From: Martelella mediterranea
GTDB lineage: Bacteria; Pseudomonadota; Alphaproteobacteria; Rhizobiales; Rhizobiaceae
Direction of reading: 5' to 3'
NCBI RefSeq assembly: GCF_021021415.1
Contig: NZ_JAINWJ010000030.1
Coordinates: forward strand, 38,169 to 102,168
DNA length: 64,000 nt
The position numbers and the translations under genes were made by a program. Below are positions 34,776-53,566 of the stretch, piece by piece (positions within the stretch are counted from its first letter, which is position 1; every line of letters starts with the position of its first letter). The notes beneath the pieces were generated by a model, which was not told the origin of the DNA, searched no databases, and saw nothing but the letters and a program-made list of their open reading frames with translations.

Positions 34776-34890
34776 GATTGCCTCTCGAAGGCCGCCCCGG
34801 AGAGACAAGCTCCCCGGGGCTTCTCCAGACGGTGCGATATCGCAAGGAGCGGAGGGGACGCCGCAAACCGGCGACACCCAATGTGGCAAA

Positions 34891-35382
34891 TCAGCCGTTC
34901 TTGACCTCGATGCGCTTGACCTTCGCCTGCGCCTCGGGAGTCTGGGGCAGCTTGATCGTCAGAACCCCGTTCTTGAAGGATGCCTGCGCCTTTTCGCCAT
35001 CCACACCGGGAGGGAGCGGAATTGTCCGGTAGATCGCGCCGTAGCTGCGCTCGGACAGGTAATACCCCTTTTTCTCCTCCTGGCGCTCGATCTTCTTCTC
35101 CCCCTTCACAGTCAACATGTCATCGTTGACCGTCACCTCGATGTCCTTCATCTCCATGCCCGGCAGCTCGATCGATACTTCGATCGCCTTGTCGGTCTCG
35201 ACCACGTCGGATTTCGCTTCGCCGCTGCCAAAGGGCCATTCGAAATGACCGACACGGTTCCAGAAGTTCTCGAACACATGGTTCATTTCGCGCTGGAGTG
35301 TCGCGATCGGGTTGTCTTCGCTGCTCTTGGCATCTGGCGCGCCGTCCTTGCGCGCCCAGGGGATGAGGTCTTTGATCTGCAT
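34891..35382 (-). CDS. Small heat shock protein Hsp20
   Basis: The 163-residue chaperone has an alpha-crystallin domain (about 60-155: DVVETDKAIEVSIELPGMEMKDIEVTVNDDMLTVKGEK, then GVLTIKLPQ, the GVL motif). It holds unfolding proteins for refolding by the disaggregase encoded nearby. It is the third of three tandem hsp20 genes on the minus strand. Likely cotranscribed with the other two and with psiE. Confidence 0.93.
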   Translation of the reverse strand: MQIKDLIPWARKDGAPDAKSSEDNPIATLQREMNHVFENFWNRVGHFEWPFGSGEAKSDVVETDKAIEVSIELPGMEMKDIEVTVNDDMLTVKGEKKIERQEEKKGYYLSERSYGAIYRTIPLPPGVDGEKAQASFKNGVLTIKLPQTPEAQAKVKRIEVKNG

Positions 35383-35402
35383 GATATGGTCTCCTTCGGT
35401 TT

Positions 35403-35801
35403 TCAGGCGCCCTTGACGGCGATCTTTTTCGGCTGCGCTTCAGGGGCTCGGGGGAGCGTCAGGGTGAGGACACCTCCACGCATCTCGGCTTCGATCCTGT
35501 TGGGGTCGAAGTCCTCGGAAAGCGTGAAGGCACGCTCGAAATCGCCCTCGCCATATTCGGCATAGGCAAGTTCGAGGTTTTCCGGCCGCACCGGGTCAAC
35601 TTTGCCGCGGATCGTCAACACACGATTTTCGAGCGTGATCTCGACCGCATCGGCGGCGACCCCAGGCATTTCAAGCATCATGGAGACACCCTGATCGGTC
35701 TCGACGATATCGGTCAACGGGCGGTAGATGCGTCCGCCGCCGGTGGTCTCGGGCGAGTCGGTCGGCGTCTTTTCGGCGGCTTGCGTGATGTCGGTGCTCA
35801 T
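35403..35801 (-). CDS. Small heat shock protein Hsp20
   Basis: The 132-residue protein has the alpha-crystallin core (PLTDIVETDQGVSMMLEMPGVAADAVEITLENRVLTIRGK) and the GGVLTLTLPRAPEA C-terminal strand. It resembles the HSP20 members that pair with another Hsp20 in such islands. It lies 20 bases upstream of the 163-residue paralogue and 14 bases downstream of the 141-residue one. Confidence 0.93.
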   Translation of the reverse strand: MSTDITQAAEKTPTDSPETTGGGRIYRPLTDIVETDQGVSMMLEMPGVAADAVEITLENRVLTIRGKVDPVRPENLELAYAEYGEGDFERAFTLSEDFDPNRIEAEMRGGVLTLTLPRAPEAQPKKIAVKGA

Positions 35802-35815
35802 CGTTCCAGCTCCTC

Positions 35816-36241
35816 TCAGGCTGCCTTGATCTCGATTTTCTTCGGCTTTTCTTCCTCGGGCCGGGAGATGACGATCCGCAATACGCCGTTCGTCATCCTC
35901 GCCTCGACCTTGTCATCCGAGGCCGCGAACGGCAGGCGGATAGTGCGGGAAAACCTGCCGAAACCGCGTTCGTTGCGGTGCCAGCGCGCACCGTCGGGAA
36001 CCTCGGGCGCCTTGCGTTCGCCCGAAAGCGTCAGGACGTTGTCCTTGACCGAAATCTCAATGTCGCCCGGTTCGATGCCGGGAAGTTCAGCGGCGATGGC
36101 AACGGCCTCAGGGCCTTGCCAGACATTCACCGCCGGGAACGCCGCGCGAGCCGGCGGCCAGAAACCGCGGTCGAGATCGCGCATCGTGGAGCGCATCAGC
36201 GCAAAGGGATCGCTGCGGCGCAGATATGTCGGGTAGAGCAT
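35816..36241 (-). CDS. Small heat shock protein Hsp20
   Basis: The 141-residue protein starts with a short aromatic N-terminus (RSTMRDLDRGFWPP), then the alpha-crystallin domain (PAVNVWQGPEAVAIAAELPGIEPGDIEISVKDNVLTLSGERK) and NGVLRIVISRPEEE. It is first in the minus-strand hsp20 operon, whose promoter region is shared with the divergent marR-ftsH unit. Confidence 0.93.
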   Translation of the reverse strand: MLYPTYLRRSDPFALMRSTMRDLDRGFWPPARAAFPAVNVWQGPEAVAIAAELPGIEPGDIEISVKDNVLTLSGERKAPEVPDGARWHRNERGFGRFSRTIRLPFAASDDKVEARMTNGVLRIVISRPEEEKPKKIEIKAA

Positions 36242-36358
36242 TACTGGCCTCCTGTTGCTGATCGATGCCCCCGAACCGTCGGCATGGAGGGACCGGGCAA
36301 CGGTGCCGGCCGGATGTGGGTTCGGAGACCGCCCATCAAGATAGGCGGTTCCATTTAT

Positions 36359-36383
36359 TATGCAAGCATATGTGATGCGTGCA
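36359..36383. promoter_or_regulatory. Putative MarR operator in the hsp20/marR divergent region
   Basis: Two short palindromes, tatgc-aa-gcata (36359-36370) and atgc-gt-gcat (36374-36383), are centred 14 bases apart, about 60 bases before marR. Similar tandem palindromes bind MarR dimers. The site could control marR-ftsH and the divergent hsp20 genes together. Confidence 0.5.
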
Positions 36384-36443
36384 TTGCACTTTGGATGGAG
36401 TGCGGTCTATCCTGTGTCTCATGCAACCGGAGGAAGGATACCT

Positions 36444-36875
36444 ATGATCTCTTCGGACATCGCGCTGATCGGGACGACGATCCACCGGGTCGCGCAGCTC
36501 ATCCAGCAGCGGATCGACCAAGACATCCGTGACAGCGGCCTGACCCGCCTGTCCTGGATGGCGGCGGCGCATGTCGAGGATGCGCCCGGGCTGACCATCG
36601 GCGATCTGGCCGACCGACTTGAGGTCGGCCCGGCCACTGCGGGCCAGCTCGTCGATCGCATGGTCCGGGGCGGCTGGGTCGAGCGGTCGCCCTCGCTCGA
36701 CGACAGGCGGTCGCAGATCGTCACCGCAACGTCGAAGGCCGGGGCGATGCTGGAGGAACTCGCGCCGCGGCAATCGGCGCTCGAACATGAAATCCTGCAG
36801 GATCTGTCGGCAGACGAAAGGCGCATCCTGCTGGCGCTACTCGAGCGGATCAGGGCGCGGCTCGGGCGCCAGTGA
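36444..36875 (+). CDS. MarR-family transcriptional regulator
   Basis: The 143-residue protein has the MarR winged helix (LTRLSWMAAAHVEDAPGLTIGDLADRLEVGPATAGQLVDRMVRGGWVERSPSLDDRRSQIVTATSKAGAMLEEL). GGAGGAAGG lies 6 bases before ATG 36444; the frame is open upstream to 36360 but without a ribosome site. It precedes ftsH by 14 bases. It may repress the island's hsp20 and ftsH units and respond to an oxidant or ligand. No conserved sensor cysteine is obvious. Confidence 0.88.
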   Translation: MISSDIALIGTTIHRVAQLIQQRIDQDIRDSGLTRLSWMAAAHVEDAPGLTIGDLADRLEVGPATAGQLVDRMVRGGWVERSPSLDDRRSQIVTATSKAGAMLEELAPRQSALEHEILQDLSADERRILLALLERIRARLGRQ

Positions 36876-36889
36876 AAGGGACAAGCGGC

Positions 36890-38722
36890 ATGGAAAGGAA
36901 GACCGAATATAACATCTGGTACTGGGTGGTGGCTTTCATAGCCGTGCTTTTCATCCAGAACCTGATCGCCGGCTGGCAATTCGTCGCACCGATCAGCTAC
37001 AGCCAGTTCGAGAGCTATCTCGAGGATGGCAGGGTCGCGTCCGTCGCGGTCGGCGCGGACACCATCACCGGCACCTTCACCGACCCCGTCGACGGCAAGA
37101 GCCAGTTCGTCACCACGGTCGTGGATCCCGCGATCCTGCAGCGGATCGACCGCTCCGGCGTCGAGATCACGGGCGTTCCTCAGAACACCTTTCTCGGCAC
37201 GCTGATTTCCTGGGTGGCGCCAGCGCTTGTCTTCTTCGGAATCTGGATGCTGTTGTTCCGCAAGTTCGCCGACAAGCAGGGCTTCGGAGGCTTCATGCAG
37301 GTCGGCCGCAGCAAGGCCAAGGTTTACATGGAAAAGGAAACCGGCGTCAGTTTCGCTGACGTGGCCGGCGTGGACGAGGCCAAGGCCGAGCTCGAGGAGG
37401 TCGTGGAGTTCCTCAGGAACCCCGCCGAATACGGAAAGCTGGGCGCACATATCCCCAAAGGCATATTGCTCGTTGGGCCGCCGGGCACCGGCAAGACGCT
37501 TCTGGCGCGCGCAGTGGCAGGCGAGGCGGGCGTGACCTTCTTTTCGATCTCGGGCTCCGAGTTCGTCGAGATGTTCGTGGGCGTCGGCGCCGCACGGGTG
37601 CGCGACCTGTTCGAGCAGGCCCGGAAATCCGCCCCGGCGATCATCTTCATCGACGAGCTGGACGCTCTCGGGCGGGCGCGCTCCTCCGGCCAGACCGCTG
37701 GCGGCCACGATGAGCGTGAGCAGACGCTGAACCAGCTTCTGACCGAGCTCGACGGCTTCGACCCTTCGGTGGGCATCGTGCTCCTGGCCGCCACCAACCG
37801 ACCAGAGATCCTCGACCCCGCGCTGCTGCGTGCGGGACGCTTCGACCGGCAGGTGCTGGTGGATCGGCCGGATAAGAAGGGACGTGTGCAGATTCTCGGC
37901 GTTCACATGAAAAAGGTGAAGCTCGCCCCGGACGTCGATGCCGAGAAGGTCGCAGCGCTTACTCCCGGCTTTTCCGGGGCGGACCTCGCCAATCTCGTCA
38001 ACGAGGCTGCGCTGCTTGCCACGCGCCGCAAGGCCGATGCGGTGACGATGGACGACTTCAACAATGCCGTCGAGCGCATCATCGCAGGGTTGGAAAAGAA
38101 GAACCGCGTTCTGAACCCGCGCGAACGCGAGATCGTGGCGCACCACGAGATGGGGCACGCGCTGGTGGCGATGGCTCTGCCGGGGGTGGACCCGGTGCAC
38201 AAGGTCTCGATCATACCGCGCGGAATTGGCGCGCTCGGCTACACGATCCAGCGCCCGACCGAGGACCGCTTCCTGATGACGCGGGAGGAACTCGAGAACA
38301 AGATCGCCGTGCTGCTGGGCGGGCGCGCGGCCGAGAAGATTGTCTACGACCACCTCTCGACCGGGGCGGCGGACGATCTGGTCAAGGCCACCGATATCGC
38401 CCGCGCCATGGTCGCGCGGTACGGGATGGACGAAGACCTCGGGCATGTCAGCTACGACACCGATCGGCCCGGCTTTCTCGGCACCGGCGACCAGTCGTCG
38501 TGGCTGAACCGCCGCTACAGCGAGGCCACTGCCGAGCGGATGGACGCGAAGGTGCGCGACATCGTGGATGGCGTGTTCAAGCGCACCGTCTCGCTTCTCG
38601 AAGCCAACCGGGCGCTGCTCGAGCAATCGGCGCAGGATCTCCTGCAACGGGAGACACTGGACGAGCCCGATCTGGTGGTAATTGGGTCCAAGGTGAAAAG
38701 AACGGAAGCAGTCGCTGCGTGA
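36890..38722 (+). CDS. ftsH: ATP-dependent zinc metalloprotease FtsH
   Basis: The 610-residue membrane AAA protease has N-terminal membrane segments (9-29 and 102-123) around a periplasmic domain, Walker A GPPGTGKT (196-203), the pore and SRH motifs ([12 protein letters not shown]) and the zinc site H419-E-M-G-H423. It degrades damaged membrane and cytosolic proteins. A plasmid-borne second FtsH is a hallmark of the stress-tolerance island. It follows marR and precedes the disaggregase gene by 63 bases. Confidence 0.95.
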
Positions 38723-38785
38723 CACCGTCACTGACGCAGATGATCGGCGGACAACCCTGACTGGATAAAGAAACGGAGAGGAAAA

Positions 38786-41680
38786 ATGGCAAACGGAACT
38801 TGCGATATTTGCGGTCGCCCGGCGACGGCGCGCGTGCGCGCCTCGGTGAACGGCAAAGTTCAGAACATGGAGCTGTGCGATCAGCACTACCGCGAAATGG
38901 TGCGCCGGTCGGGCCGCAGCGCATCGCCGCTGGAGTCCCTGTTCGGACGACATTCCCTTTTTGACGAATTCTTCGGCGATAGCGGGTTCGGCAGCCTGTT
39001 CAGCGACAGCCCGCTGCGGGGTGGTGCACTGGGCGCCACGGGCGCGGGTGAGGACGACGTCGTGGATGCCACCTTCGGGGAGGAAACGCCGCGCCGCGGA
39101 TCGCGGCGCGGCGGCGGACGCACCATCGCCGATCGGCTGAGCGAACAGGGCAACAAGCTGCTGCAGGATGCAGCACAGAAGGCCGGGGAATTCGGGCGCA
39201 GCGAGGTCGATACCGAACATCTGCTTCTGGCATTGACCTCGTCTGACGTCGTCAAGACGATCCTGGAACAGTTCAAGGTCGATGTGGACGATCTGCGCCG
39301 CCAGATCGAGAAGGAAGCGAAGCGTGGAGACGCCAAGACGGAAGGCGAAATCGGCGTAAGCCCTCGCCTGAAGGACGCGCTGAACCGGGCCTTCATCGCC
39401 TCGAACGAACTCGGCCATTCCTATGTCGGTCCCGAGCACCTTCTGATCGGACTTGCCGAGGAAGGTGAAGGCCTGGCCGCGGCGATGCTGCGCAAGCTGG
39501 GGTTGACGCCGCAGGCGCTGCGTCAGCAGGTGACGAAGGTGGTCGGCAAGGGAGCCGAGGAAGGCCGCGTCGAGACTCCGTCGAACACCCCCGATCTCGA
39601 CCAGTTCAGCCGTGACCTGACGAAGCTCGCCCGCGAGGGCAAGCTCGATCCCGTCATCGGCCGCGCCCGCGAGATCGAGACGACGATCGAAGTGCTGGCC
39701 CGCAGGAAAAAGAACAACCCGGTGCTGATCGGCGAGCCCGGCGTGGGCAAGACCGCCATCGTCGAGGGACTTGCACAACGGATCGTCGCGGGCGAAGTGC
39801 CCGAGGCGCTGCGCGACAAGCGGCTGGTCGAGCTCAACATCAACTCGATGGTGGCCGGGTCGAAGTATCGCGGCGAGTTCGAGGAGCGAGTCCAGAAGAT
39901 CCTCAAGGAGATCACCGAGGAGAAGGACAGCCTGATCCTGTTCATCGACGAGATGCACACCATCGTCGGCGCCGGCCAGGGCGGTGGCGAAGGTGGTCTC
40001 GACATCGCCAACACCTTCAAGCCGGCGCTGGCGCGGGGCGAGCTGAACCTGATCGGCGCGACGACGCTCAACGAGTACCAGAAATACATCGAGAAGGACG
40101 CGGCGCTCGAGCGACGGTTCCAGCCGGTTTATGTGGACGAGCCCACGGTCGCACAGACCATCATGATTCTGCGCGGGCTGCGCGACACGCTCGAAAGCCA
40201 CCACAAGGTGACGATCACCGACGAGGCGATCATCGCCGCCGCGGAGCTTTCGGATCGCTATATCACCGGTCGCTTCATGCCCGACAAGGCGATCGACCTG
40301 ATCGACCAGGCCGCGGCGCGGGTGAAGATCTCGGCCACTGCGCGGCCCGTGGACGTGCAGGAACTCGAAGCCGAGGTCGCGCAGATCAAGCGCGAACAGG
40401 ACTATGCCGCAGCCCGCAAGCAATTCGACCGAGCAGCAGAACTGAAGAAGGAGCTGGAGCAGAAGCAGAAGGAGCTGGACGAGCTTCTGGAGATCTGGAA
40501 GCGCGATCAGGCTTCGGCGACCGCCGAGGTGCGCGCCGATCACGTCGCGCAGATCGTCTCCAAGATCACCGGCGTTCCGGTCACGGACCTGACCACCGAG
40601 GAGAAGGACAAGCTCCTCAAGCTCGAGGAGAAGCTGCACGAGCGCGTCATCGGCCAGGAAGAAGCGATCCGCGCCGTGGCCGATGCGGTGCGCCTGGCGC
40701 GAGCGGGTCTGCGCGAAGGTTCCGGTCCGACCGCGACCTTCCTGTTCCTCGGGCCGACCGGGGTTGGCAAGACGGAACTGGCCAAGACGCTCGCGGAGGT
40801 GATCTTCGGCGACCAGGATGCGCTGATCCGTATCGACATGTCGGAGTATGGCGAGCGCCACTCGGTTGCCCGGTTGGTTGGCGCACCTCCGGGCTACGTC
40901 GGATACGACGAAGGCGGGCAGCTGACGGAGAAGGTGCGCCGTCGGCCCTACTCGGTCGTGCTCCTCGACGAGATCGAAAAGGCGCATCCCGATGTCTACA
41001 ACATCCTGCTTCAGGTGTTCGACGATGGCCGCCTGACAGATGGCAAGGGCCGCGTGGTGGACTTCACTAACACCATCATCATCGCCACCTCGAACCTCGG
41101 TTCGGACATCATCCAGCGCAACCTCACGAAACGCGGCAGCAGTGAGTTCGACGAGGCCAAGCAGAAATCCGAACTGATGGAGGTGTTGCGCGGTCATTTC
41201 CGGCCAGAGTTCATCAACCGGATCGACGAGATCATCGTCTTTCATTCGCTGAATCAGTCGGAGATCCGCCAGATCGTCGAGTTGCAGCTCAACCGGGTGA
41301 AGCGGACCGCCCTTACCCAGGGCGTCGAACTCGAATTCGACGTGAGCGTCGTGGATCACTTCGGCGCGGTCGGCTTCCGTCCCGAATTCGGTGCCCGCGA
41401 GCTGCGCCGGCTGATCCGGTCGGAGTTGGAGACCGAGTTGGCTCGCGAACTGCTCTCGGGGCGGATCGAGGATGGCGACAAGGTCCGCGTCGCCTGGTCG
41501 GAAGACGAACAGAGGGTCGTGTTCGAAAAGATCGTAAAGGACACCGGTGACGACAGCCCGGACGATCAGGCCAAGGCCGGGATCGAGGAGCCCAGCGAAG
41601 TTGCCGAAAACAAGACGGACGTTCCGAAGCCCAGCGTTGGGGATGAGGTGCAGTCCAAGGACGACAAGTCCGACGAGTGA
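38786..41680 (+). CDS. clpK: ClpK/ClpG-type stand-alone disaggregase
   Basis: The 964-residue AAA+ protein has an N-terminal zinc-finger-like motif (C6-x2-C9, C31, H34) and a Phe/Gly-rich linker ([14 protein letters not shown]). A Clp N domain (about 113-255), NBD1 Walker A GEPGVGKT (316-323), a short coiled coil and NBD2 Walker A GPTGVGKT (656-663) follow. The tail is long, acidic and lysine-rich. This architecture is that of ClpK/ClpG, which dissolve aggregates without DnaK and give strong heat tolerance. Next to hsp20 and ftsH it forms the core of the stress-tolerance island. Confidence 0.93.
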
Positions 41681-41693
41681 CAGCGCAAAAGAC

Positions 41694-41725
41694 TGGCCCG
41701 GCGCGATATCGGTCGCGCCGGGCCA
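41694..41725 (+). terminator. Strong hairpin after clpK
   Basis: A perfect 13-bp stem, tggcccggcgcga (41694-41706) and tcgcgccgggcca (41713-41725), with a 6-base loop begins 13 bases after the clpK stop. It is followed by tctctt rather than a long T run. It may end or attenuate transcription between clpK and the HPF-sigma gene. Confidence 0.65.
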
Positions 41726-41757
41726 TCTCTTCGGAGAGTTATAGGAAGGTCCACGGC

Positions 41758-42900
41758 ATGAACGTCATTAGATCATTCCGCAATCTCGACCGGCACGGCC
41801 AACAGCGCGCGCCTGAGGTCATCGAGGAAGAGGTGCGGCAACTTGAACCGCACCTTGCGCGCTTTCGCGAGGATCTGGTCCGGCTCGAAGACGTTGCCTC
41901 GCAGACGAGGGGCAAGAAGCGCATCAAAGTCAGCCTGCGCCTGCAGCTGCCGTCGGGCGTGATCGCGGCGCGGGAAGAGGGATTCGAGATCGAGCCTGTC
42001 CTGCGCAAGGCCTTTGCCGACCTGCGCCACCAGGTCGATCGGCATGTGGCGCGCCTCAAGCACGAGCCTGAATACAAGCGTCCCGCCCGCCGGCGCCGGA
42101 TCGGCGCCCCGCTGCCGCCCGCGCGGAATGCGGCGGAAGCGGACCGGCGCCAACTCTTCTTCGACCTGATCGAGGATCATCTCGATACGGTCTACGATAC
42201 CGTCAGGCGCGAGTTGACCTATCTCGAGTGCAGCGGGTCTGTGCCGGCTGGCTACCTGAGCGTTGGCGATATCGTCGATGCGACGATCCTCAAGGGGCTG
42301 GCCCGCTTCGAGGATCGGCCTTCGGAGTTTTCCGTCGGCGACTGGCTGAAACGGCTGGCTTTTGAGACCATCGAGGAAGAATCCCGCGCCGCCCGCCGCG
42401 CCGTGCCTGAGGATGCCGCCTCCATCGAGGCGGAACCCGAGGCCCCGGCGGAGGATCCGACCGAGGCCGATCAGGCGATGATCGAGTTCTACCAGCCCGA
42501 CGAAGTGCTGATGCTGGAGGACCTCATCGCCGACGACGGCGGCACAGACCCCGAGACCGAAGTGGATCGTCATAAGATCGCCATGGCACTGCACCGGGCT
42601 ATCGCAGATCTTGCTCCGGTCGAGCGCCGCGTCCTGTATCGGATGTACCTGGAAGACGCCACGATCGCGGAGACGGCAGACCTTTTCGGCCTGACCGAGA
42701 CAGAGGTCGCCGAGATCGCAGAAAATGCGGGCGCGACACTACGCGCGAGGCTTGCCGAAACCGGGTTGGTCAGAGATCCATCAGGCCGCGCGCCCATCGA
42801 ACGGGAAATCGCTCACACGCAGCGTCTACCTCAGCCGATCCAGGATCGCCGCCGCGTGGCCGCCGCCCTAACCGGCGAGGAGGCCGGCTCCGACACCTGA
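41758..42900 (+). CDS. HPF/RaiA-like ribosome-associated domain fused to a sigma-70-like domain
   Basis: The 380-residue protein has an N-terminal HPF/RaiA-like part (residues 1-105: ARFREDLVRLEDVASQTRGKKRIKVSLRLQLPSGVIAAREEG, then helices LRHQVDRHVARLKHEPEY) and a basic linker. A region like sigma-70 region 2 (about 130-213: LSVGDIVDATILKGLARFEDRPSEFSVGDWLKRLAFETIEEESR) follows. An acidic stretch comes next, then a region-4-like helix-turn-helix (275-335: LAPVERRVLYRMYLEDATIAETADLFGLTETEVAEIAENA). It could couple ribosome hibernation to transcription. Whether it binds ribosomes, polymerase or both is unknown. AGGAAGG precedes ATG 41758. Confidence 0.75.
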   Translation: MNVIRSFRNLDRHGQQRAPEVIEEEVRQLEPHLARFREDLVRLEDVASQTRGKKRIKVSLRLQLPSGVIAAREEGFEIEPVLRKAFADLRHQVDRHVARLKHEPEYKRPARRRRIGAPLPPARNAAEADRRQLFFDLIEDHLDTVYDTVRRELTYLECSGSVPAGYLSVGDIVDATILKGLARFEDRPSEFSVGDWLKRLAFETIEEESRAARRAVPEDAASIEAEPEAPAEDPTEADQAMIEFYQPDEVLMLEDLIADDGGTDPETEVDRHKIAMALHRAIADLAPVERRVLYRMYLEDATIAETADLFGLTETEVAEIAENAGATLRARLAETGLVRDPSGRAPIEREIAHTQRLPQPIQDRRRVAAALTGEEAGSDT

Positions 42901-42926
42901 CATGGAACTGAATAGGAGATCGACCA

Positions 42927-43574
42927 ATGACCACATCCTCTGAAAACCCGACCGACAAGATGCAGGACATGCTGTGCAGCCTGTCCCGGAATTGGTGGGC
43001 ATTCGTGTTACGCGGCGTGCTCGCATTGATCATCGCAGTGCTAGCCTTCGTCATGCCTGCGGAAGCGCTTCTGGCGCTCACGCTGGTCTTCGGCGCGTTC
43101 GCCTTTGCCGACGGCGTGTTCGGCCTCGTCGCCGCGATACGTAACATCCGCAAGGGCGAACGCTGGGGCTGGCTGATGTTCAGCGGCATTCTGGGCATCG
43201 CCACGGGCGTCGTCGTGGTTGTCTCGCCTTTTGTCGCGACGCTTGTGCTTGCGACATTCCTCTGGGCCAGCATCGCATTCTGGTCCGTGTTCTCGGGTGC
43301 CCTCGAGATCGCGGCAGCGATCCGCCTGCGAAAGGAAATCAACGGCGAAATCTGGCTGATCCTGAGCGGCCTTCTCTCGGTCGTTCTCGGTGTCGTCGTG
43401 ACCTGGATGCTGCTGACGCGCCCGGTCGAAAGCTTCCTCGCGCTCGGCTGGCTGATCGGCTTCTACGCCGCGGTCTTCGGGGTGATGATGATCCTCCTCG
43501 GGCTACGGCTTCGCAAGGCGGATCGTTCGGACGGTGCGGCCTTCGATAACGCTCCCCCATCGGCAAAGGCGTGA
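42927..43574 (+). CDS. hdeD: HdeD-family membrane protein
   Basis: The 215-residue protein has six membrane segments in three similar hairpins (WWAFVLRGVLALIIAVLAFVMP, WGWLMFSGILGIATGVVVV, IWLILSGLLSVVLGVVVTWML), the HdeD/DUF308 pattern. HdeD helps E. coli resist acid at high density and is a standard member of stress-tolerance islands. GGAG precedes the ATG, 26 bases after the HPF-sigma gene. Confidence 0.9.
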   Translation: MTTSSENPTDKMQDMLCSLSRNWWAFVLRGVLALIIAVLAFVMPAEALLALTLVFGAFAFADGVFGLVAAIRNIRKGERWGWLMFSGILGIATGVVVVVSPFVATLVLATFLWASIAFWSVFSGALEIAAAIRLRKEINGEIWLILSGLLSVVLGVVVTWMLLTRPVESFLALGWLIGFYAAVFGVMMILLGLRLRKADRSDGAAFDNAPPSAKA

Positions 43575-43786
43575 GGTGCCCTGTGGTGGATGACGGGCGA
43601 CTTGCCGGCGAGGAGCACGATTTCACCCGATGGGACGAAACGATCTTCGACCGTTGCCTGAGCACCGGTTTCAATCCGTTCGGCAGCGGTCCGACGCCAA
43701 TCTTCCTGCGGCACCGGGACGCAGAGGCGCCGGACGCCGATGCAAAGCCGTGCATGCCACCTGACACCGAAAATGCGAGGTGCTGA
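43571..43786 (+). CDS. Possible small coupled protein (71 residues)
   Basis: A GTG start overlaps the hdeD stop (GTGA), and its TGA overlaps the ATG of the next gene, so the frame fills the gap exactly. The product (EEHDFTRWDETIFDRCLSTGFNPFGSGPTPIFLRHRD) has no recognised domain, signal or membrane segment. The tight coupling supports translation, while the lack of homology I can recall argues for caution. It might be a remnant. Confidence 0.4.
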   Translation: MRCPVVDDGRLAGEEHDFTRWDETIFDRCLSTGFNPFGSGPTPIFLRHRDAEAPDADAKPCMPPDTENARC

Positions 43787-44406
43787 TGTCGAACCGCCTG
43801 CCTGACTTGGCATTTGCTGCTGCGGCCGCTGCCTTGGGCATCGGCATCGTTTTCGTTTTTCGTTCGATGTATCTTGCCGAAGACATACTGCCTTTCGCGC
43901 AGGAGATGACGCTCATCTTCCTCGGCGCTGTCGTGACGATCATTCTGACCGCGGCGCTTCTCAATCGCCAGACCGATCTCGAGCTTCGCAAGGAAGGAAG
44001 GGTCATCATCCTCCAGCAGCAATGCGACATTTACATGGCCTGTATCGAGAAGGTCGCAGAGATCGTGGAAACCGCAAGGCACGATGCCAAGCTGATCGAT
44101 GAACTGCGTGTTCTCAGCCACAAGCTGGCTGTAGTCGCGAGTGCAGGGGTCGTTTCCAGCTTCGAGCAGGTACTGGAGAGATTGCAGTCCGGTTTTGCTG
44201 ACGGCACGCTCTCGGACGGGGACGGAGAGGGCGTGATGAATGCCGTCGCCGATCTCACGATAGCGATGCGGTCGGACGTCCTGCACGCTGCTGCCTTTCC
44301 TTCGCAGAACACCGAACGCGCCGTTCGCCTGAATTCGAGGCGAATGGAAAAACTCGACGATCTCGAACGTCACCTTCTCGTATCCACCAACACCCGGGAG
44401 AACTGA
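43786..44406 (+). CDS. Membrane-anchored helical protein, function unknown
   Basis: The 206-residue protein has two N-terminal membrane segments (about 8-28 and 38-62) and a cytosolic helical domain with the run LQQQCDIYMACIEKVAEIVETARHD. I do not recognise the family. The layout resembles small sensors or scaffolds. Position between hdeD and the NDUFS4-like gene suggests a stress-island passenger. ATG 43786 overlaps the stop of the preceding small frame; an upstream GTG at 43780 is also in frame. Confidence 0.7.
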   Translation: MSNRLPDLAFAAAAAALGIGIVFVFRSMYLAEDILPFAQEMTLIFLGAVVTIILTAALLNRQTDLELRKEGRVIILQQQCDIYMACIEKVAEIVETARHDAKLIDELRVLSHKLAVVASAGVVSSFEQVLERLQSGFADGTLSDGDGEGVMNAVADLTIAMRSDVLHAAAFPSQNTERAVRLNSRRMEKLDDLERHLLVSTNTREN

Positions 44407-44407
44407 T

Positions 44408-44968
44408 ATGCGCGGCCATAATCGCCCACCATTCCCGCCGAAAATTCCCGGAACCGATCTGCCATCCTGGGACGTGCCGACGGCAATCATCTACCGTCCT
44501 GCCCGTTCCGCGATGACATCGGCGCCTCGGCGCAACTACTGGGTCCTCGAGTTCGAGCCGTCGCGGCCGCCGCAGATCGAGCCGCTGATGGGATACACGT
44601 CGAGCGGCGATCCCCATCGTCCGATTCGGCTGAAGTTTCCGGATCGCGACAGCGCCGTGGACTTCGCAGAGCGGCAGGACTGGCATTATGTCGTGCGCGA
44701 GGACGCTGGGGGAGCCCGGATGGCGAACCCTTGGGCGGGTGAGACGCGCCACCGGCTGCACAGGGGCGTCGATGCCCCGGGAGCCTTCCGGGTCCCGTTC
44801 CGCCCCGATCGCCGCCTCTCAAGAGGCGTCCAGCATGAGAGCACGGCCGACCCGTCTACCAGCGACAGGGAGAGTTTCGATCCGGTCCTCGAAGCCTCGC
44901 TCGAATCCTTCCCCGCCTCTGATCCTCCGGCGTGGACGGGTGTGACAATTGCAAGAAAGACGACGTGA
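44408..44968 (+). CDS. NDUFS4-like (ETC complex I subunit) protein
   Basis: The 186-residue protein contains the NDUFS4/ETC_C1 pattern: AIIYRPARSAMTSAPRRNYWVLEFEP, MGYTSSGDPHRPIRLKFPDRDSAVDFAERQDWHYVV. Standard alphaproteobacterial complex I subunits of this family are about 100 residues. Here a 75-residue tail follows (TSDRESFDPVLEASLESFPASDPPAW). It might protect or replace a complex I accessory subunit under stress. It starts one base after the preceding stop. Confidence 0.78.
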   Translation: MRGHNRPPFPPKIPGTDLPSWDVPTAIIYRPARSAMTSAPRRNYWVLEFEPSRPPQIEPLMGYTSSGDPHRPIRLKFPDRDSAVDFAERQDWHYVVREDAGGARMANPWAGETRHRLHRGVDAPGAFRVPFRPDRRLSRGVQHESTADPSTSDRESFDPVLEASLESFPASDPPAWTGVTIARKTT

Positions 44969-45001
44969 TGACGGCCAGCTGCATGCGCTCGGGGAAATGA
45001 G

Positions 45002-45753
45002 ATGTTTCCATGGGCCGATACCGTTGCGCGCAGATACCCCCCGTGGCCGTCTGGTCAGTCGTCGGGATCAGCCTTCTCGCTTTCCTCTACCAGAGCGGCC
45101 TGCCGCCGCGTGCGCTCAACCGGTTCCTGTTCGACTTCGCGCTGGTGCCGTCGCGCGTCTTCGGTCAGTTCCGCCTCGTCGCCCCGTCCGACTGGACCCC
45201 GTTCCTGACCAACATCTTCCTGCACGGGGGCTGGCTGCATCTCATCTTGAACATGTGGACGCTCTGGATCTTCGGCCCTGCCGTCGAAGATCGGCTCGGA
45301 CCGGGTAGATTCACACTGTCCTATCTGTTCTGTGGTGTGGCGGCCGGACTGGCTCACGCGCTGGCGAACCCCCACTCAGTCGTTCCCGCGCTTGGCGCAT
45401 CGGGGGCCATCGCGGGCGTGATCGGTTGCTAAGCACGCATGTTTCCGGCGGCTCGGCTGGTGGTGATCGTGCCGATTCTGTTCATTCCCGTCTTCTTCGA
45501 AGTGCGCGCGGTCATTTTCGCGATGATCTGGTTCTTCATGCAGGTCATTCCCGGCTTTCTGTCGCTCGGCAGCGATCAGGCCACGGGCGGGATTGCCTGG
45601 TGGGCGCATATCGGCGGGTTTGTCGCCGGTTGGCTCGTAACGCCACCCCTGCGAAGGCGCGCCGACGCCTATCGCCACTATTATCGCGACGAGGGCATCT
45701 ATGGCTTTCTGCCGGATGGCCGACGGGAAGGAGGACAAGGTCCATGGACATAA
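45002..45753 (+). pseudogene. Rhomboid intramembrane serine protease, broken
   Basis: From ATG 45002 the frame encodes MFPWADTVARRYPP. A six-C tract at 45036-45042 then needs one more C to continue as VAVWSVVGISLLAFLYQ. The protease core is present (HGGWLHLILNMWTLWIFGPAVEDRLG, catalytic serine in GASGAIAGVIG). The frame stops at TAA 45430-45432, where TAC is expected, and resumes in phase as ARMFPAARLVVIVP with the second catalytic histidine in WWAHIGGFVAGW. Two lesions make it nonfunctional unless read through. It overlaps the next gene by 10 bases. Confidence 0.85.
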
Positions 45754-46586
45754 TGCAGCTGTTCTGGCTGTTCTTCATCATTTCGGCGCTGCAGCCGGTT
45801 CTGCAGCGCAGATATCTTGAGGCGATGCGCACACGCAAGATCGCCAACATCGAGAAGAAGCGCGGCAGTCGCGTAATTCTGCTGATTCATCGGCAGGAGA
45901 CCATGAACCTGCTGGGTTTCCCCCTGATGCGCTACATCGATGTCAATGACTCGGAGGACGTCCTGCGCGCGATCCAGATGACCGACGACGAAGTGCCGCT
46001 CGACATCGTGCTGCACACACCGGGCGGCCTTGTGCTGGCAGCAACCCAGATCGCTCGGGCCATTCAGGGCCACAAGGGCAAGGTCACCGTGTTCGTGCCG
46101 CATTACGCGATGTCGGGCGGCACGTTGATCGCGCTTGCCGCCGACGAGATCGTGATGTGCGAGCATTCCGTGCTGGGACCCGTCGATCCGCAACTTGGCC
46201 AGTTGCCGGCCGCCTCGCTCCTCAAAGTCGTCGAGGAGAAACCCATCGCCGAGATCGACGACCAGACCCTGATCATGGCCGATGTCGGTCGCAAGGCCAT
46301 TGCGCAGATCGAGGCATTCGCGAAGCGTCTTTTGTCCGACAAGATGGACGAGAACCGCGCGGCGGCGCTGGCGGCGAAGCTGGCGACGGGCACCTGGACC
46401 CACGATTATCCCATCTTTGCCGAAGAGGCCCGCGACATGGGCCTGCCCGTCGGAACGGACATGCCCAAGGAAATACTGGAGCTAATGACGCTCTATCCGC
46501 AGCCGGTTCGGCGCCAGGGCGGTGGCGTGGAATACCTACCCGCGCCGCGGCAGCGAGAGGCCCGCCGCGCCATATCCACGCGCTGA
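45744..46586 (+). CDS. SDH-type (ClpP-fold) membrane-associated serine protease
   Basis: The 280-residue protein has one N-terminal hydrophobic segment (IMQLFWLFFIISALQPVLQ) followed by a ClpP/crotonase-fold domain: VILLIHRQE, LDIVLHTPGGLVLAATQIARAI, and HYAMSGGTLIALAADEIVM with the likely nucleophilic serine. It matches serine dehydrogenase proteinase (SDH/SppA-like) proteins found in stress-tolerance islands. AAGGAGGACAAGG precedes ATG 45744; longer frames upstream overlap the rhomboid remnant and are rejected. Confidence 0.87.
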   Translation: MDIMQLFWLFFIISALQPVLQRRYLEAMRTRKIANIEKKRGSRVILLIHRQETMNLLGFPLMRYIDVNDSEDVLRAIQMTDDEVPLDIVLHTPGGLVLAATQIARAIQGHKGKVTVFVPHYAMSGGTLIALAADEIVMCEHSVLGPVDPQLGQLPAASLLKVVEEKPIAEIDDQTLIMADVGRKAIAQIEAFAKRLLSDKMDENRAAALAAKLATGTWTHDYPIFAEEARDMGLPVGTDMPKEILELMTLYPQPVRRQGGGVEYLPAPRQREARRAISTR

Positions 46587-46638
46587 ACGCTTGCATCATT
46601 CGGCCGCCGAGCCCGGATCGTCAACGAAAGGATACAGG

Positions 46639-47061
46639 ATGCCCACGGTCGCTTGCCTGCAGTGCAATTCCACCAACAGGGTGCCGCAAGAGCGCCTGAG
46701 CGACAACCCCAATTGCGGACACTGCGGCGCGCCTCTCTTTCAAGGCATGCCCGTCACGCTCACCGCGGCTAATTTTGACCGCCATGCGAATGCCGAACTG
46801 CCAGTGCTGGTCGATTTCTGGGCCGAGTGGTGCGGGCCATGCAAGATGATGGCGCCCCAGTTCGAGGCGGCGGCGCGCTCGCTCGAACCCCATGTCCGCC
46901 TGGGCAAGCTCGACACCGAGGCCGAACAGCAGATTGCCGGCCGCTACGGGATCCGCGGCATTCCCACCATGATCCTGTTCAGTAGCGGGAAGGAAATCGC
47001 GAGAACGAGCGGAGCAATGCCTGCCGCGCAGATAGCGCAGTGGGCGTGGTCGCACGTCTAG
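46639..47061 (+). CDS. trxC: Thioredoxin 2
   Basis: The 140-residue protein has an N-terminal zinc-binding module (CLQC and CGHC pairs within the first 32 residues) and a thioredoxin fold with the WCGPC active site in VDFWAEWCGPCKMMAPQF and the cis-proline in GIRGIPTMILF. TrxC-type thioredoxins reduce oxidised and chlorinated proteins and are standard in stress-tolerance islands. AAGGATACAGG precedes ATG 46639. Confidence 0.93.
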   Translation: MPTVACLQCNSTNRVPQERLSDNPNCGHCGAPLFQGMPVTLTAANFDRHANAELPVLVDFWAEWCGPCKMMAPQFEAAARSLEPHVRLGKLDTEAEQQIAGRYGIRGIPTMILFSSGKEIARTSGAMPAAQIAQWAWSHV

Positions 47062-47124
47062 GTCTAGAGTTTACAGGTATTGGCCTTACCTGCGCCATGC
47101 CATCAGGAGAAGAAGGAGAAGAAC

Positions 47125-48270
47125 ATGCATGGCGTGACCGGATTTGTTGAAAGTGCGGCCTTGTTGGTCTTTGCCGCGTTCGTGCTCGTGACGATATGTT
47201 CACGGATCGGCGTGCCCAGTATCGTCGGTTACATTCTTGCCGGCATAGTCATCGGACCTGCCGGCCTCGGCCTAATTGCCGAAAACGCTGCCCTGAGCAG
47301 CATCGGCGAGATCAGAGTGGTGCTGCTGCTGTTCGCGCTCGGCCTGGAATTCTCGTTCGAGAAGCTCGTAAGACTCAGGAAGCATGTCTTCGGTCTTGGA
47401 GCCGTGCAGGTTGCAGTCACGACGATAACGGTGTCGTTGATAGCGAGTCTGATCTTCGATCTCGCGCCCGTCCCCGCAATCCTCATCGGCGGGGCCGTTG
47501 CCATGTCATCCACGGCCATGTGCCTCAAGGTGCTCGCAAGCGCGAACGCTCTGGGATCGGCCCAAGGACGCCTGGCCATTGCGGTGCTTCTGTTTCAAGA
47601 CTTGGCAGCTGTCGCATTCCTGCTTCTGCACGATTCGATGAGTGGAGCCGCAGAAGGGTATGGCGTGATAACGGTCGTCGCCAGTGCAACGGCATTGGTT
47701 GCAGCTCTGTTCATTGCCCGTGGCCCGTTGCAGTTGCTGGCCCGTTGGGTAGCGTCGCGTGGCGATCCGGAACTTGCCCAGCTTCTCGCGCTCACCATTG
47801 CACTAGGGTCTGCGATTGTCGCGGCCACCGCCGGCCTTTCTCCGGCACTCGCCGCATTCGCGGCCGGCATGATCATCGGCGAGGGTGACGCGCGCCATGC
47901 CGTCGAGAACGAGATCCGGCCCTTCCGCGATTTGTTTGTCGGGATTTTCTTCGTAAGCATCGGAACGCAATTGCCACTTTGGATCATCCCGTATGCGTGG
48001 CCAGTCGTGCTGAGCTGGCTCGCGATCATATTTGCGGGCAAGACGCTGATCGTTTTGGTCGTCGCCCGACTATTCGGCGAGTCGCTTCAGACCGCATGGA
48101 GGACTGGGATCATCCTGGCCCACGGAGGAGAATTCAGCCTGATGCTGCTGTCGGCTTCCTCGACATCGGGCAGTGTTGCGGAGGAATTCGCTGGTCCTTT
48201 ACTCCTCGCGATTGGCATGAGCATGCTGGCCGGGAGTGTCATGGTCAGATGGGCGGGGCTAAAGGTTTAG
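47125..48270 (+). CDS. kefB: KefB-type cation:proton antiporter, membrane domain only
   Basis: The 381-residue protein has about 12 membrane segments with the CPA2 features GYILAGIVIGPAGLGLI, LFALGLEFSFEKLVRLR, LLFQDLAAVAFLLLHDSM and GIILAHGGEFSLMLL. KefB/KefC proteins normally continue with a RCK nucleotide-binding domain that gates the channel. Here the frame ends right after the membrane part (VMVRWAGLKV). Phage genes of the opposite strand begin 35 bases later, so truncation at the island edge is likely. Alternatively it is a short antiporter. AAGGAGAAGAAC precedes the ATG. Confidence 0.87.
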   Translation: MHGVTGFVESAALLVFAAFVLVTICSRIGVPSIVGYILAGIVIGPAGLGLIAENAALSSIGEIRVVLLLFALGLEFSFEKLVRLRKHVFGLGAVQVAVTTITVSLIASLIFDLAPVPAILIGGAVAMSSTAMCLKVLASANALGSAQGRLAIAVLLFQDLAAVAFLLLHDSMSGAAEGYGVITVVASATALVAALFIARGPLQLLARWVASRGDPELAQLLALTIALGSAIVAATAGLSPALAAFAAGMIIGEGDARHAVENEIRPFRDLFVGIFFVSIGTQLPLWIIPYAWPVVLSWLAIIFAGKTLIVLVVARLFGESLQTAWRTGIILAHGGEFSLMLLSASSTSGSVAEEFAGPLLLAIGMSMLAGSVMVRWAGLKV

Positions 48271-48304
48271 TGGGGTCAACATCAATATAACTATATTACT
48301 CAGA

Positions 48305-48556
48305 TTACTGACAGCACGCCCACGCCTGATCCCGCATGACGCTTTCGGAAAGCAATTCGGCGATTGCCGACCCATCCGGCAGCAGATCGAGCTCGTCGGC
48401 TGCGTGCGCCTGGACCTCTCGGCTATGGTCAACAAAGGGCGGACAGACGGTAGCCATGCGGGGATCGAAATTGGCCGTCGCGCAGGCAATCAGCGAGATT
48501 GCTGCGATCACGAGGACGGCGAGCTGCCGCGTCGAGCATCTGGCGTTGGATGTCAT
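48305..48556 (-). CDS. Rz1-like outer-membrane spanin lipoprotein
   Basis: The 83-residue frame starts inside the Rz-like gene in another phase. It has a signal segment and lipobox (AVLVIAAISLIAC) and a short periplasmic part (VCPPFVDHSREVQAHAADELDLLPDGSAIAELLSESVMRDQAWACC). Nested Rz/Rz1 genes are the hallmark of phage spanins that fuse the inner and outer membranes at lysis. Similar proteins sit at the lysis end of Rhodobacter-type phages. Confidence 0.7.
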   Translation of the reverse strand: MTSNARCSTRQLAVLVIAAISLIACATANFDPRMATVCPPFVDHSREVQAHAADELDLLPDGSAIAELLSESVMRDQAWACCQ

Positions 48557-48730
48557 TGACCTTCTCGGAGGTTTCGAGGCGTTCGGCGAGCCGGCCAGCG
48601 CGCTCGCCGGAGCGCCGGAGCGCCGGAGCGTGAGCAGGAACAGAAGCACAGCGAGGACGATGGCGCCGAAGCGCAGCGCCGCCCGCGTCCACGGGCTGGC
48701 GGCGAACCCGGTCAGAAGCGCGGCGATCAC
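48429..48730 (-). pseudogene. Rz-like inner-membrane spanin, frameshifted by an 8-bp repeat
   Basis: A GTG at 48730 overlaps the endolysin stop and starts VIAALLTGFAASPWTRAALRFGAIVLAVLLFLLTLRRSG, an inner-membrane anchor. The sequence cgccggag is present three times in tandem (48605-48628). Removing one copy restores GERAGRLAERLETSEKVNDIQRQMLDAA, a coiled-coil periplasmic arm. With three copies the frame runs instead into the Rz1 phase. So the gene is probably inactivated by slippage, although a frame mixture in the population is possible. Confidence 0.65.
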
Positions 48731-49401
48731 CGCCGCCCCCGGCGCCAGTCGTCGAGGCGGGCATAGATGGTGACCGCGATGCCACCGAGTGCCACCGCAA
48801 TGAACACCCAGCGCAGGGTGTCGAGGTACGGCACCAGCGGCAGGATGGCGGATTGGGTCTCGGCGAGGACACTCTGCGCCACCTCGACCCCGGCTGCGCC
48901 CAGCGTCGCCGCTCCGGCAGCCCCGCCGCCCCTCATGGTGCGGCTGTGGGCCAGAACTTCGCGCGCTGGTGGCGTTTCTTCGGTGAAGGCAGTCGCCCGG
49001 ACCGGGAACCGCTCGCCCCACTGCCGTGCGGGCCCGAGGTCGACATGGATGAACCCCGATCTCGGGTAGAAGCCCAAGCCGAGGAACCCGACCTCCCGCG
49101 CCGCGGCCTCGAACACCACCGGGTCGTGGTTCGCCATGGCGATATCAAAGGCGGCGCCGTCGAGGTGCTTGGAGCGGGTCGCGCCGCCCACGGCGCGATT
49201 GTGCTCAGGGCTGCGATAGGCGGAGCGGACGATCAGCGGCTTGCCGAGCCGGTCGCGCAGCGCCTGCAGCTTGTCGAGCGCGGGTTCGTTGATGAGCAGC
49301 TTGCCGGTGCCCCGGCAGGCGATCTCGGCCGGGCTGAAATTCGGCCAGTGCCAGGTGCCCTCGGGCACGTCGCGCCAGTGGCTGTGGAAGGTATTCGTCA
49401 T
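48727..49401 (-). CDS. Phage endolysin, M15 D-Ala-D-Ala peptidase
   Basis: The 224-residue protein has a peptidase M15A domain (residues 1-125) with zinc ligands in SKHLDGAAFDI and FIHVDLG, and the SAYRSPEHN motif. A C-terminal hydrophobic segment (VFIAVALGGIAVTIYARL) may anchor it. It cuts peptide cross-links in peptidoglycan. GGAGG precedes ATG 49401. It begins a lysis cassette with overlapping spanin genes. Confidence 0.88.
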   Translation of the reverse strand: MTNTFHSHWRDVPEGTWHWPNFSPAEIACRGTGKLLINEPALDKLQALRDRLGKPLIVRSAYRSPEHNRAVGGATRSKHLDGAAFDIAMANHDPVVFEAAAREVGFLGLGFYPRSGFIHVDLGPARQWGERFPVRATAFTEETPPAREVLAHSRTMRGGGAAGAATLGAAGVEVAQSVLAETQSAILPLVPYLDTLRWVFIAVALGGIAVTIYARLDDWRRGRR

Positions 49402-49458
49402 GGGGTCCTCCGAAACGAGTTTCCGGCCCCTCGCAGGGGCTCGGCGCGTTCGCCGTTC

Positions 49459-49500
49459 GGGAAGGTCCACCGGACCTTCCCGTCTGCCTGTCAGGCAGAC
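49459..49500. terminator. Two tandem hairpins between DUF6127 and endolysin genes
   Basis: A 10-bp stem gggaaggtcc / ggaccttccc (49459-49468 and 49472-49481) is followed at once by gtctgcc / ggcagac (49482-49500). They lie 60 bases past the DUF6127 stop on the minus strand. There is no T tract, so they may be attenuating or processing structures. Confidence 0.5.
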
Positions 49501-49561
49501 CACGGCTCACCCCGCCACGAGGGCGGGTCATTGCGGGCTGATGAATGGGGATGGGGAGCGG

Positions 49562-49849
49562 CTACGGGCCGCCGCCGAAGATCTTGAGCTTGATGGCGAT
49601 GCCCGCGAGCAGCGCCAGCATCACGCCGGTGGTGATCATGCGGACGGCGGTCTGCATGGCGGTGCGGCGCACCAGCCGGATGCAGTCCACCAAGGAGCGC
49701 AGATCGCGGATGTCGAGCGCGGCCTCGTCGCCGTCGAGCCCGACGTCGGCCAGTGCGCGCTTCGCGCCTTCCTCTGCGGCCCGCGTCAGGATCGCCTCGA
49801 ACTCGGCGTCGGGCATGCGCACGAAGCCCTCGGATCGGGGTGGTGTCAT
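49562..49849 (-). CDS. DUF6127 phage-associated membrane protein
   Basis: The 95-residue protein has an acidic soluble part (MPDAEFEAILTRAAEEGAKRALADVGLDGDEAALDIRDLRSLVDCIRLVRRTA) and one membrane segment (MITTGVMLALLAGIAIKLKIFG). This is the usual form of DUF6127 proteins found between tail-fibre and endolysin genes of alphaproteobacterial prophages. A holin-like role would fit the position but is not shown. Confidence 0.8.
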   Translation of the reverse strand: MTPPRSEGFVRMPDAEFEAILTRAAEEGAKRALADVGLDGDEAALDIRDLRSLVDCIRLVRRTAMQTAVRMITTGVMLALLAGIAIKLKIFGGGP

Positions 49850-49868
49850 CGGATCCTCCTTGCGCCGC

Positions 49869-50945: not shown

Positions 50946-50967
50946 GGGCGGTCTCCAGAACGAAGAA

Positions 50968-50990
50968 CGCCGCCTGCATGGCAGGCGGCG
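50968..50990 (-). other. 10-bp hairpin upstream of the DUF2793 gene
   Basis: The stem cgccgcctgc (50968-50977) and gcaggcggcg (50981-50990) with loop atg lies 23 bases before the DUF2793 start on its strand. It may be an mRNA structure that separates it from the preceding gene. Confidence 0.45.
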
Positions 50991-51020
50991 GACAATGGCG
51001 CGGTGATCGGCGATGGCGAG

Positions 51021-51401: not shown

Positions 51402-51454
51402 GGCCCGAGCCTACGACGCCGATCGCGCATAGTGCCAGAACTCATTGCGCTACC

Positions 51455-53452: not shown

Positions 53453-53556
53453 AAGTTACTTGCCACGTTGGCGAGGTTCTCCTGAACCCCGTGCGAGTAA
53501 GACCATCACGCCGGTCGGCAGGATGTCCAGCACCCAGCCATCGCGGTTGAGCTGCA
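53444..53556 (-). pseudogene. Fragment of a DUF2493 gene joined to the tail-tip remnant
   Basis: On the minus strand this stretch encodes NRDGWVLDILPTGVMVLLARGSGEP, clearly related to NDQMLDVLPIGVMVFPGTGIQEN in the intact gene at 54785-55705. The DNA is recognisably similar but not identical to 54803-54915. The nine bases cggaatgcc are shared at the join (53444-53452 and 54803-54811), suggesting illegitimate recombination between a DUF2493 gene and the phage gene. Confidence 0.75.
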
Positions 53557-53566
53557 TTTGTCACAA

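What the first reader, a model, noticed from the sequence alone, without database searches (positions are those of the whole stretch)
41758..42900. HPF/RaiA-like domain fused to a sigma-70-like domain in a stress-tolerance island
Seen: one intact 380-residue frame with an HPF/RaiA-like N-terminus (1-105), region-2-like helices (130-213) and a region-4-like helix-turn-helix (275-335). Known: HPF proteins inactivate ribosomes in stress, and sigma factors recruit polymerase. Inference: one protein might link ribosome hibernation to transcription of the heat-tolerance genes. I know of no experimental description of such a fusion.
Basis: partly seen in the sequence, partly recalled or inferred. Interest (0 to 1): 0.7.

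Follow-up and report, generated by a model that had tools for sequence, protein, structure and literature searches.

The report
Ribosome-hibernation domain fused to sigma mimic
A mobile heat-tolerance gene island carries one protein that joins a predicted ribosome-hibernation-type fold to a predicted sigma-factor-type fold whose DNA-reading helix has lost its positive charge, so it likely docks a protein partner instead of reading promoters, and a distant relative is the unexplained gene orf11 of the same kind of island in E. coli and Klebsiella.

Summary
Frame 41758-42900 encodes 380 residues with an HPF/RaiA fold (1-105), an ECF-type sigma2 fold (125-215), an acidic linker with an invariant QPD motif, and a sigma4 fold (263-335). 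Two AlphaFold models and profile searches agree. It is a conserved family: clpK lies upstream in 71 of 77 alphaproteobacterial loci, beta relatives sit beside hsp20 and groEL/dnaK, and a distant relative is orf11 of the E. coli/Klebsiella stress-tolerance island, so far of unknown function.
The recognition helix is mostly acidic (mean charge -2.04 in 80 family rows, +3.08 in 12 reference sigmas), like that of the host's own PhyR sigma mimic (-4). The core-binding Gln is Asp in 77 of 80. Sigma4 was exchanged (36% identity between types) while the island control region was not (88%).
Best reading: a hibernation-type protein with a sigma-mimic docking half. Ribosome binding and the partner are untested; deleting orf11 in E. 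coli had no reported heat or chlorine effect.

The parts
41758..42900 (+). HPF-sigma fusion gene, 380 residues
41758..42072 (+). HPF/RaiA-like domain, residues 1-105 (b-a-b-b-b-a)
   Evidence: model and fold search; S30AE 19.5 bits (below cut-off); relatives over cut-off
42073..42102 (+). arginine-rich extension, residues 106-115 (K107, R108, R111, R112 basic in 96-99% of 80 rows)
42130..42402 (+). sigma2-like domain, residues 125-215; Asp174 stands where sigma70 has Gln406
42403..42543 (+). acidic linker, residues 216-262, net charge -16
42484..42522 (+). EFYQPDEVLMLED motif (residues 243-255); Q246, P247, D248, E254 invariant in 80 of 80 rows
42544..42762 (+). sigma4-like domain, residues 263-335
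42694..42732 (+). recognition helix TETEVAEIAENAG, residues 313-325, net charge -4
34891..36241 (-). three Hsp20 genes of the island
   Evidence: Pfam HSP20
36361..36383 (.). inverted repeat TGCAAGCAT-N5-ATGCGTGCA in the control region 36242-36443, recognisable in rows of several sigma4 types
   Evidence: read, aligned; operator role inferred
36444..36875 (+). MarR-family regulator
   Evidence: Pfam MarR_2
36890..38722 (+). FtsH protease
38786..41680 (+). ClpK-type (Clp AAA) disaggregase; Clp family by Pfam, the name ClpK by island comparison
42927..43574 (+). HdeD-type membrane protein (DUF308)
43780..44406 (+). orf43780, no Pfam match, hit in 51 of 77 loci
45744..46586 (+). SDH-type serine protease
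46639..47061 (+). thioredoxin with zinc ribbon
47125..48270 (+). Na+/H+ exchanger-type antiporter, 381 aa

Best explanation
The protein joins a predicted HPF/RaiA-type fold to a predicted sigma2-sigma4-type fold and likely works as a stress protein that binds ribosomes with its first half and holds a sigma-binding protein partner with its second half, rather than directing polymerase to promoters. Shown here: both folds (predicted models plus profile matches), one conserved protein family, co-location with chaperone genes in alpha-, beta- and gammaproteobacteria, and a recognition helix without net positive charge. Inferred: (1) the basic N-terminal half docks on idle 30S or 70S ribosomes during heat or chlorine stress; (2) the acidic sigma-like half is a mimic that, as in PhyR, occupies a protein which normally holds a sigma factor (an anti-sigma factor, or the sigma sites of core polymerase); (3) ribosome idling would thereby change which sigma factors are free. 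The sigma4 part can be exchanged between islands, as expected if it fits different host partners. Untested: ribosome binding, the partner, and any effect on transcription.
Against: TIGR02937 passes its cut-off in P0001 (51.3) and L080 (50.3), so sequence alone still says 'sigma factor'; the window protein's 51.3 is not far under the lowest of the 9 host sigmas, 56.8. Against the family's sigma4 profile the host PhyR and the best ordinary ECF sigma (L124) tie: whole-protein 28.5 and 26.6 bits, best single stretch 24.9 and 25.3, so PhyR is not the closest relative by sequence. The sigma2 tryptophan is kept in 79 of 80 rows. WhiG, a genuine sigma, has a helix charge of only +1. The profile-profile match of the N-terminal domain to ordinary HPFs is weak (probability 62%), and of 11 basic HPF positions mapped through it 4 are lost (0-1% basic), 3 intermediate (56-66%) and 4 kept (78-99%), so ribosome binding is not assured. 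None of the 14 window island stretches scanned matched an anti-sigma family. Deleting orf11 in E. coli MG1655 lacZ::LHR is not among the deletions reported to lower heat or chlorine resistance, and it did not change lipid oxidation (PMC8407380); orf11 is disrupted in LHR2 (PMC5383660). The pTM of both models is only 0.54-0.56, so how the halves are placed is not known.
Confidence: 0.48

Rival explanations
1. A genuine ECF-like sigma factor whose HPF domain is a sensor: tethered to ribosomes in growth and released (or the reverse) in stress to transcribe heat-tolerance genes.
For: TIGR02937 51.3 bits over cut-off; sigma4 over Pfam cut-offs; the best PDB matches by sequence are sigma factors, 6pfj (WhiG, name recalled) and 7qh5 (SigG1); sigma fold.
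Against: Recognition helix without positive charge, Asp at the Gln406 position in 77 of 80, no change of the hsp20-marR control region with sigma4 type in 43 sequences, no profile hit to Sigma70_r2 for the window protein, no NCBIfam hit at E 0.01 for the E. coli relative.
Confidence: 0.17
2. A plain accessory hibernation factor: the HPF domain docks on the ribosome and the sigma-like half only covers a second site of the ribosome, as the CBS module does in archaeal HibA, with no sigma partner at all.
For: Known HPF fusions of this logic exist (HibA, PMC13324472, passages and section 12 read); HPF fold; the host has a separate long HPF, so a specialised second factor is plausible.
Against: The sigma-like half is strongly acidic (residues 125-335 sum to -30), a poor match for rRNA; the sigma-like half with its motif also exists in stand-alone proteins without HPF, which suggests a function of its own.
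Confidence: 0.22
3. [quoted passage not shown]
For: Neighbours are ftsH and clpK in the window and groEL/dnaK in Burkholderiaceae. That FtsH, DnaK and GroEL act on RpoH is recalled knowledge.
Against: The closest folds are ECF sigmas, and PhyR further down; no RpoH-specific feature was tested.
Confidence: 0.07

Closest known systems
HPF/RaiA (YfiA) ribosome hibernation factors
   Different: no long-HPF dimerisation tail; fused to a sigma-like half; 4 of 11 mapped basic positions lost
ECF / sigma-70 family factors
   Same: sigma2 and sigma4 folds; TIGR02937 over cut-off
   Different: recognition helix without positive charge, Asp at the Gln406 position, HPF domain in front, exchangeable sigma4
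PhyR anti-anti-sigma factor (sigma mimic)
   Different: no receiver domain found; HPF domain instead; occurs in beta- and gammaproteobacteria too; by sequence no closer to PhyR than to the best ECF sigma
[quoted passage not shown] coli and Klebsiella
   Same: same position in the literature order hdeD-orf11-trx; full-length homology, hhalign probability 100, E 3.3e-41
   Different: only about 26% identical to the window protein; both halves more diverged, no S30AE hit
HibA (archaeal CBS module fused to HPF/RaiA; PMC13324472)
   Same: an HPF domain fused to another module
   Different: CBS module, and HPF at the C-terminus; archaea; ribosome binding shown there

Membership tests
HPF/RaiA (S30AE) | S30AE profile match over the Pfam cut-off | tested here: inconclusive
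   window protein 19.5 bits, below 23.7; 3 of the 6 family proteins scanned are over it (L080 30.2, L113 28.4, P0126 24.7), P0127 18.4, P0125 none
HPF/RaiA (S30AE) | b-a-b-b-b-a fold | tested here: met
   predicted models
HPF/RaiA (S30AE) | basic ribosome-facing positions | tested here: inconclusive
   of 11 mapped positions 4 kept, 3 intermediate, 4 lost; 2 of the 13 conserved HPF positions were not mapped, and the mapping rests on a 62%-probability profile alignment
HPF/RaiA (S30AE) | binds ribosomes and halts translation | not testable with these tools
   needs co-sedimentation or cryo-EM
sigma-70 / ECF sigma factor | sigma2-sigma4 fold and family profile | tested here: met
sigma-70 / ECF sigma factor | positively charged -35 recognition helix | tested here: not met
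   -4 in P0001, mean -2.04 in 80 rows (79 at 0 or below), against +3.08 in 12 reference sigmas (9 of the 12 checked as sigmas)
sigma-70 / ECF sigma factor | Gln406-type core-binding residue in region 2.2 (role recalled) | tested here: not met
   Asp in 77 of 80 rows, Ala 2, Asn 1; AlgU and SigG1 show Gln there (alignments)
sigma-70 / ECF sigma factor | promoters of its genes follow its sigma4 type | tested here: inconclusive
   hsp20-marR control region does not follow it, but only this one region was tested
sigma-70 / ECF sigma factor | binds core polymerase and initiates transcription | not testable with these tools
   needs in vitro transcription
PhyR-type sigma mimic | sigma-like domain without DNA-binding charge | tested here: met
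   family mean -2.04; host PhyR -4
PhyR-type sigma mimic | receiver domain at the C-terminus | tested here: not met
   no receiver match among the Pfam hits (E up to 1)
PhyR-type sigma mimic | binds an anti-sigma factor | not testable with these tools
   needs pull-down
tLST / LHR island | clpK, hsp20, hdeD, trx and antiporter genes together | tested here: met
   E. coli island for comparison

The most novel reading that the evidence does not exclude
A single-protein switch between the two great machines of gene expression: a ribosome-bound sigma mimic that lets the state of ribosomes decide which sigma factors, or how much polymerase, are free. It is carried by mobile heat- and chlorine-tolerance islands from alphaproteobacteria to E. 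coli and Klebsiella, where it has stood unrecognised as orf11.
Probability: 0.3. Interest if true: 0.85.

Novelty: new variant of a known kind. Interest (0 to 1): 0.6.

Why it matters
It gives a structural identity to orf11, a gene of unknown function in a well-studied island (orf11 DNA matches 152 of 5,426 complete E. coli genomes, 144 of them over at least 80% of the gene), and it makes a long-standing question testable: can ribosome hibernation and sigma-factor availability be linked by one protein rather than only by shared regulators, as for Rsd and RMF in E. coli (PMC6134199, abstract and outline seen)?

Tried and rejected
Rejected: anti-phage defence protein (no PADLOC match). Chance or misassembled fusion (72 of 77 loci in one frame; purifying selection). 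Frequent phage gene (of 61 pattern hits in IMG/VR 1 encodes a relative, L114). Widespread core gene (full-length in 3 of 289 class genomes and 2 of 299 phylum genomes, own genome counted in both). No Rfam match at gathering scores in 34000-49000. The second protein search added almost nothing to the first; the third brought in the beta members. One search was aimed at a 20-residue stretch by mistake and tells nothing. I first read PhyR as the host protein closest to the family's sigma4; by best single stretch it only ties with an ECF sigma, so that argument was dropped and the confidence lowered from 0.50 to 0.48, that of the plain-sigma rival raised from 0.15 to 0.17.

Weak points: (1) The 12 reference sigma helices were picked by hand: 9 loci of the 24 sigma4 hits, chosen from 11 loci extracted, of which L127 and L133 were left out as LuxR-type HTH (by eye); the 9 all pass TIGR02937; L128, L130 (PhyR), L132, the window gene itself (L134) and L135-L143 were not used; 3 more come from PDB alignments. 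(2) A3 has 80 rows, the window protein included: 79 picked at under 90% identity from 134 proteins, plus L080; P0109, P0113, P0123 and P0089 were left out because their C-termini looked out of frame or partial, shorter ones by a 355-residue limit, and the E. coli, Paraburkholderia BR3459a and Burkholderia anthina proteins because the structure tool does not accept their source. (3) The sigma4 exchange has its junction near residue 260, and all 13 type-1 loci also show no hit for hdeD and orf43780 while all 38 type-0 loci have hdeD, so it may be hitch-hiking recombination rather than selection on sigma4. (5) The HPF reference set is 24 rows, from 28 of the 30 loci that one search gave.

Full report
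What is there. Frame 41758-42900 (+) encodes one 380-residue protein. [quoted passage not shown]

It is a family. A search of 5.8 billion proteins gave 135 proteins (only the 7,994 candidates sharing most words were scored), and a profile search that included beta and gamma members gave 177 (same limit). A scan of species genomes gave 143 relatives, of which the best 80 became 77 loci; their record titles are alphaproteobacterial by my reading of the names. clpK lies upstream in 71 of 77 (within 258 bases in 70, 833 in one); 3 of the 6 misses start at a contig edge, and Rhodoplanes (L015, L016) and Parvularcula (L080) have no clpK hit. In L016 two YfdX-like proteins and a transposase-like gene stand there (my reading of the sequences). 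The next of the tested island genes is hdeD in 54 of 76 loci and orf44408 in 20. In Burkholderiaceae the gene sits beside three hsp20 genes and groES-groEL-dnaK, in Cupriavidus beside hsp20, dnaK and groEL reading frames (my reading).

The E. coli relative. tblastn against plasmids found 299 records of 72,556, chiefly Klebsiella (125), Enterobacter (74), Acinetobacter (30) and Escherichia (28), at about 25-27% identity over residues 1-340 in the rows of these genera that were listed. In E. coli plasmid NZ_CP061755.1 the gene is a 'hypothetical protein' between hdeD-GI and trx-GI. [quoted passage not shown] Profile-profile comparison of four such proteins (E. coli, P. fragi, A. baumannii and an unnamed alphaproteobacterium) with the 80-row family: probability 100, E 3.3e-41, columns 1-352 against 1-343. 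So orf11 belongs to this family. By itself it shows only a weak sigma4 hit (18 bits) and weak PDB matches to HPF (E 0.038) and sigma E (0.25). Its DNA matches 152 of 5,426 complete E. coli genomes, 144 with at least 80% coverage. In PMC8407380 (section 9 and passages) deletion of orf11 is not among the 7 of 13 deletions that lowered heat or chlorine resistance, and did not change lipid oxidation. PMC5383660 (passages) reports orf11 disrupted in LHR2. PMC7010813 (abstract, section 15 and passages) detected 11 island proteins including 'a hypothetical protein', which by elimination is likely Orf11 (my inference). Two further island papers were searched in passages: PMC5347186 has no hit for sigma, RaiA or ribosom, PMC5093140 none for orf11.

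Why not an ordinary sigma factor. The recognition helix (residues 313-325) has mean net charge -2.04 in 80 family rows, 79 of them at 0 or below (70 negative, 9 neutral, one +1), against +3.08 (+1 to +4) in 12 reference sigma helices (how they were chosen is in Tried and rejected); the 9 host sigmas among them score 56.8 to 101.1 bits with TIGR02937, the window protein 51.3. The host's own PhyR (NF006623 391.7 bits, cut-off 240), a sigma mimic, has ESDSVSNLIDEAS there, -4. Against the family's sigma4 profile this PhyR and the best host ECF sigma tie (whole protein 28.5 and 26.6 bits, best stretch 24.9 and 25.3; 13 loci offered), so the likeness to PhyR is one of charge and fold, not of closest sequence. 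The position of Gln406 of sigma70 (core binding, recalled) is Asp in 77 of 80 rows. The sigma half is acidic: -7, -16 and -7 for residues 125-215, 216-262 and 263-335. The sigma4 domain therefore does not appear to read that region. It holds a conserved inverted repeat before marR. Limits: one control region only, and the exchange coincides with absence of the downstream hdeD and orf43780 genes.

The HPF half. Ten positions in residues 1-124 are basic in at least 80% of rows, among them K107, R108, R111 and R112 just after the domain. Of 13 basic positions conserved in 24 HPF rows from related genomes, 11 were mapped through a weak profile alignment (probability 62%): 4 kept, 3 intermediate, 4 lost. 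The host also has an ordinary long HPF. Ribosome binding is thus plausible, not shown.

Origin. Sigma-like proteins with the same kind of motif but no HPF domain exist: L119:1351-2067 next to a UPF0114 membrane protein, and L148:1375-2109 (QPE in place of QPD) directly before a rhomboid gene and an SDH-type protease-like frame, the kinds of gene found with the fusion in the window island. The sigma-like module may have been in this neighbourhood before the HPF domain joined it (inference).

Mechanism. Best reading: a hibernation-type protein with a sigma-mimic docking half. The predicted fold of each half, the family, the neighbourhoods and the charge loss are computed results; ribosome binding, the partner and any effect on transcription are inferred. 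Literature: nine searches of the open-access library listed no paper that, by title and start of abstract, describes an HPF-sigma fusion. Several listings show only the top of many hits (20 of 130, 15 of 1,002, 10 of 15, 12 of 79, 8 of 9, 8 of 188). The HPF-domain survey in PMC13324472 (section 12 read whole) does not mention one, and its two hits for 'sigma' are reagent suppliers. Subscription papers and preprints are not covered, and no supplementary files were read.

Noticed in passing
window 45010-45753: The rhomboid protease gene is in two frames (Pfam Rhomboid positions 3-81 and 85-141), so it looks interrupted.
   Followed up: no
window 47125-48270: The antiporter has 381 residues with only the exchanger domain; the antiporter gene of the E. 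coli island spans 1,707 bases, so the window copy looks shortened.
   Followed up: no
window 43780-44406: orf43780 has no Pfam match, has a hit in 51 of 77 loci and also lies next to the Parvularcula HPF-sigma gene, where there is no clpK hit.
   Followed up: partly
L119:1351-2067 and L148:1375-2109: Stand-alone sigma-like proteins with a similar acidic QPD/QPE motif and no HPF domain, one beside UPF0114, one before a rhomboid gene and an SDH-type protease-like frame.
   Followed up: partly
L115:1459-2529: An unnamed alphaproteobacterium carries an E. coli-type orf11 relative, 43% identical to it.
   Followed up: partly
L016:5000-10000: Rhodoplanes: two YfdX-like proteins and a transposase-like frame upstream of the HPF-sigma gene, no clpK hit (my reading).
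   Followed up: no
window 48727-53564: Minus-strand frames after the island look like phage or gene-transfer-agent tail and endolysin genes (my reading).
   Followed up: no
P0027: A copy is listed in a eukaryote set (eukprot, Tetstr1, read by me as the green alga Tetraselmis), probably bacterial contamination.
   Followed up: no
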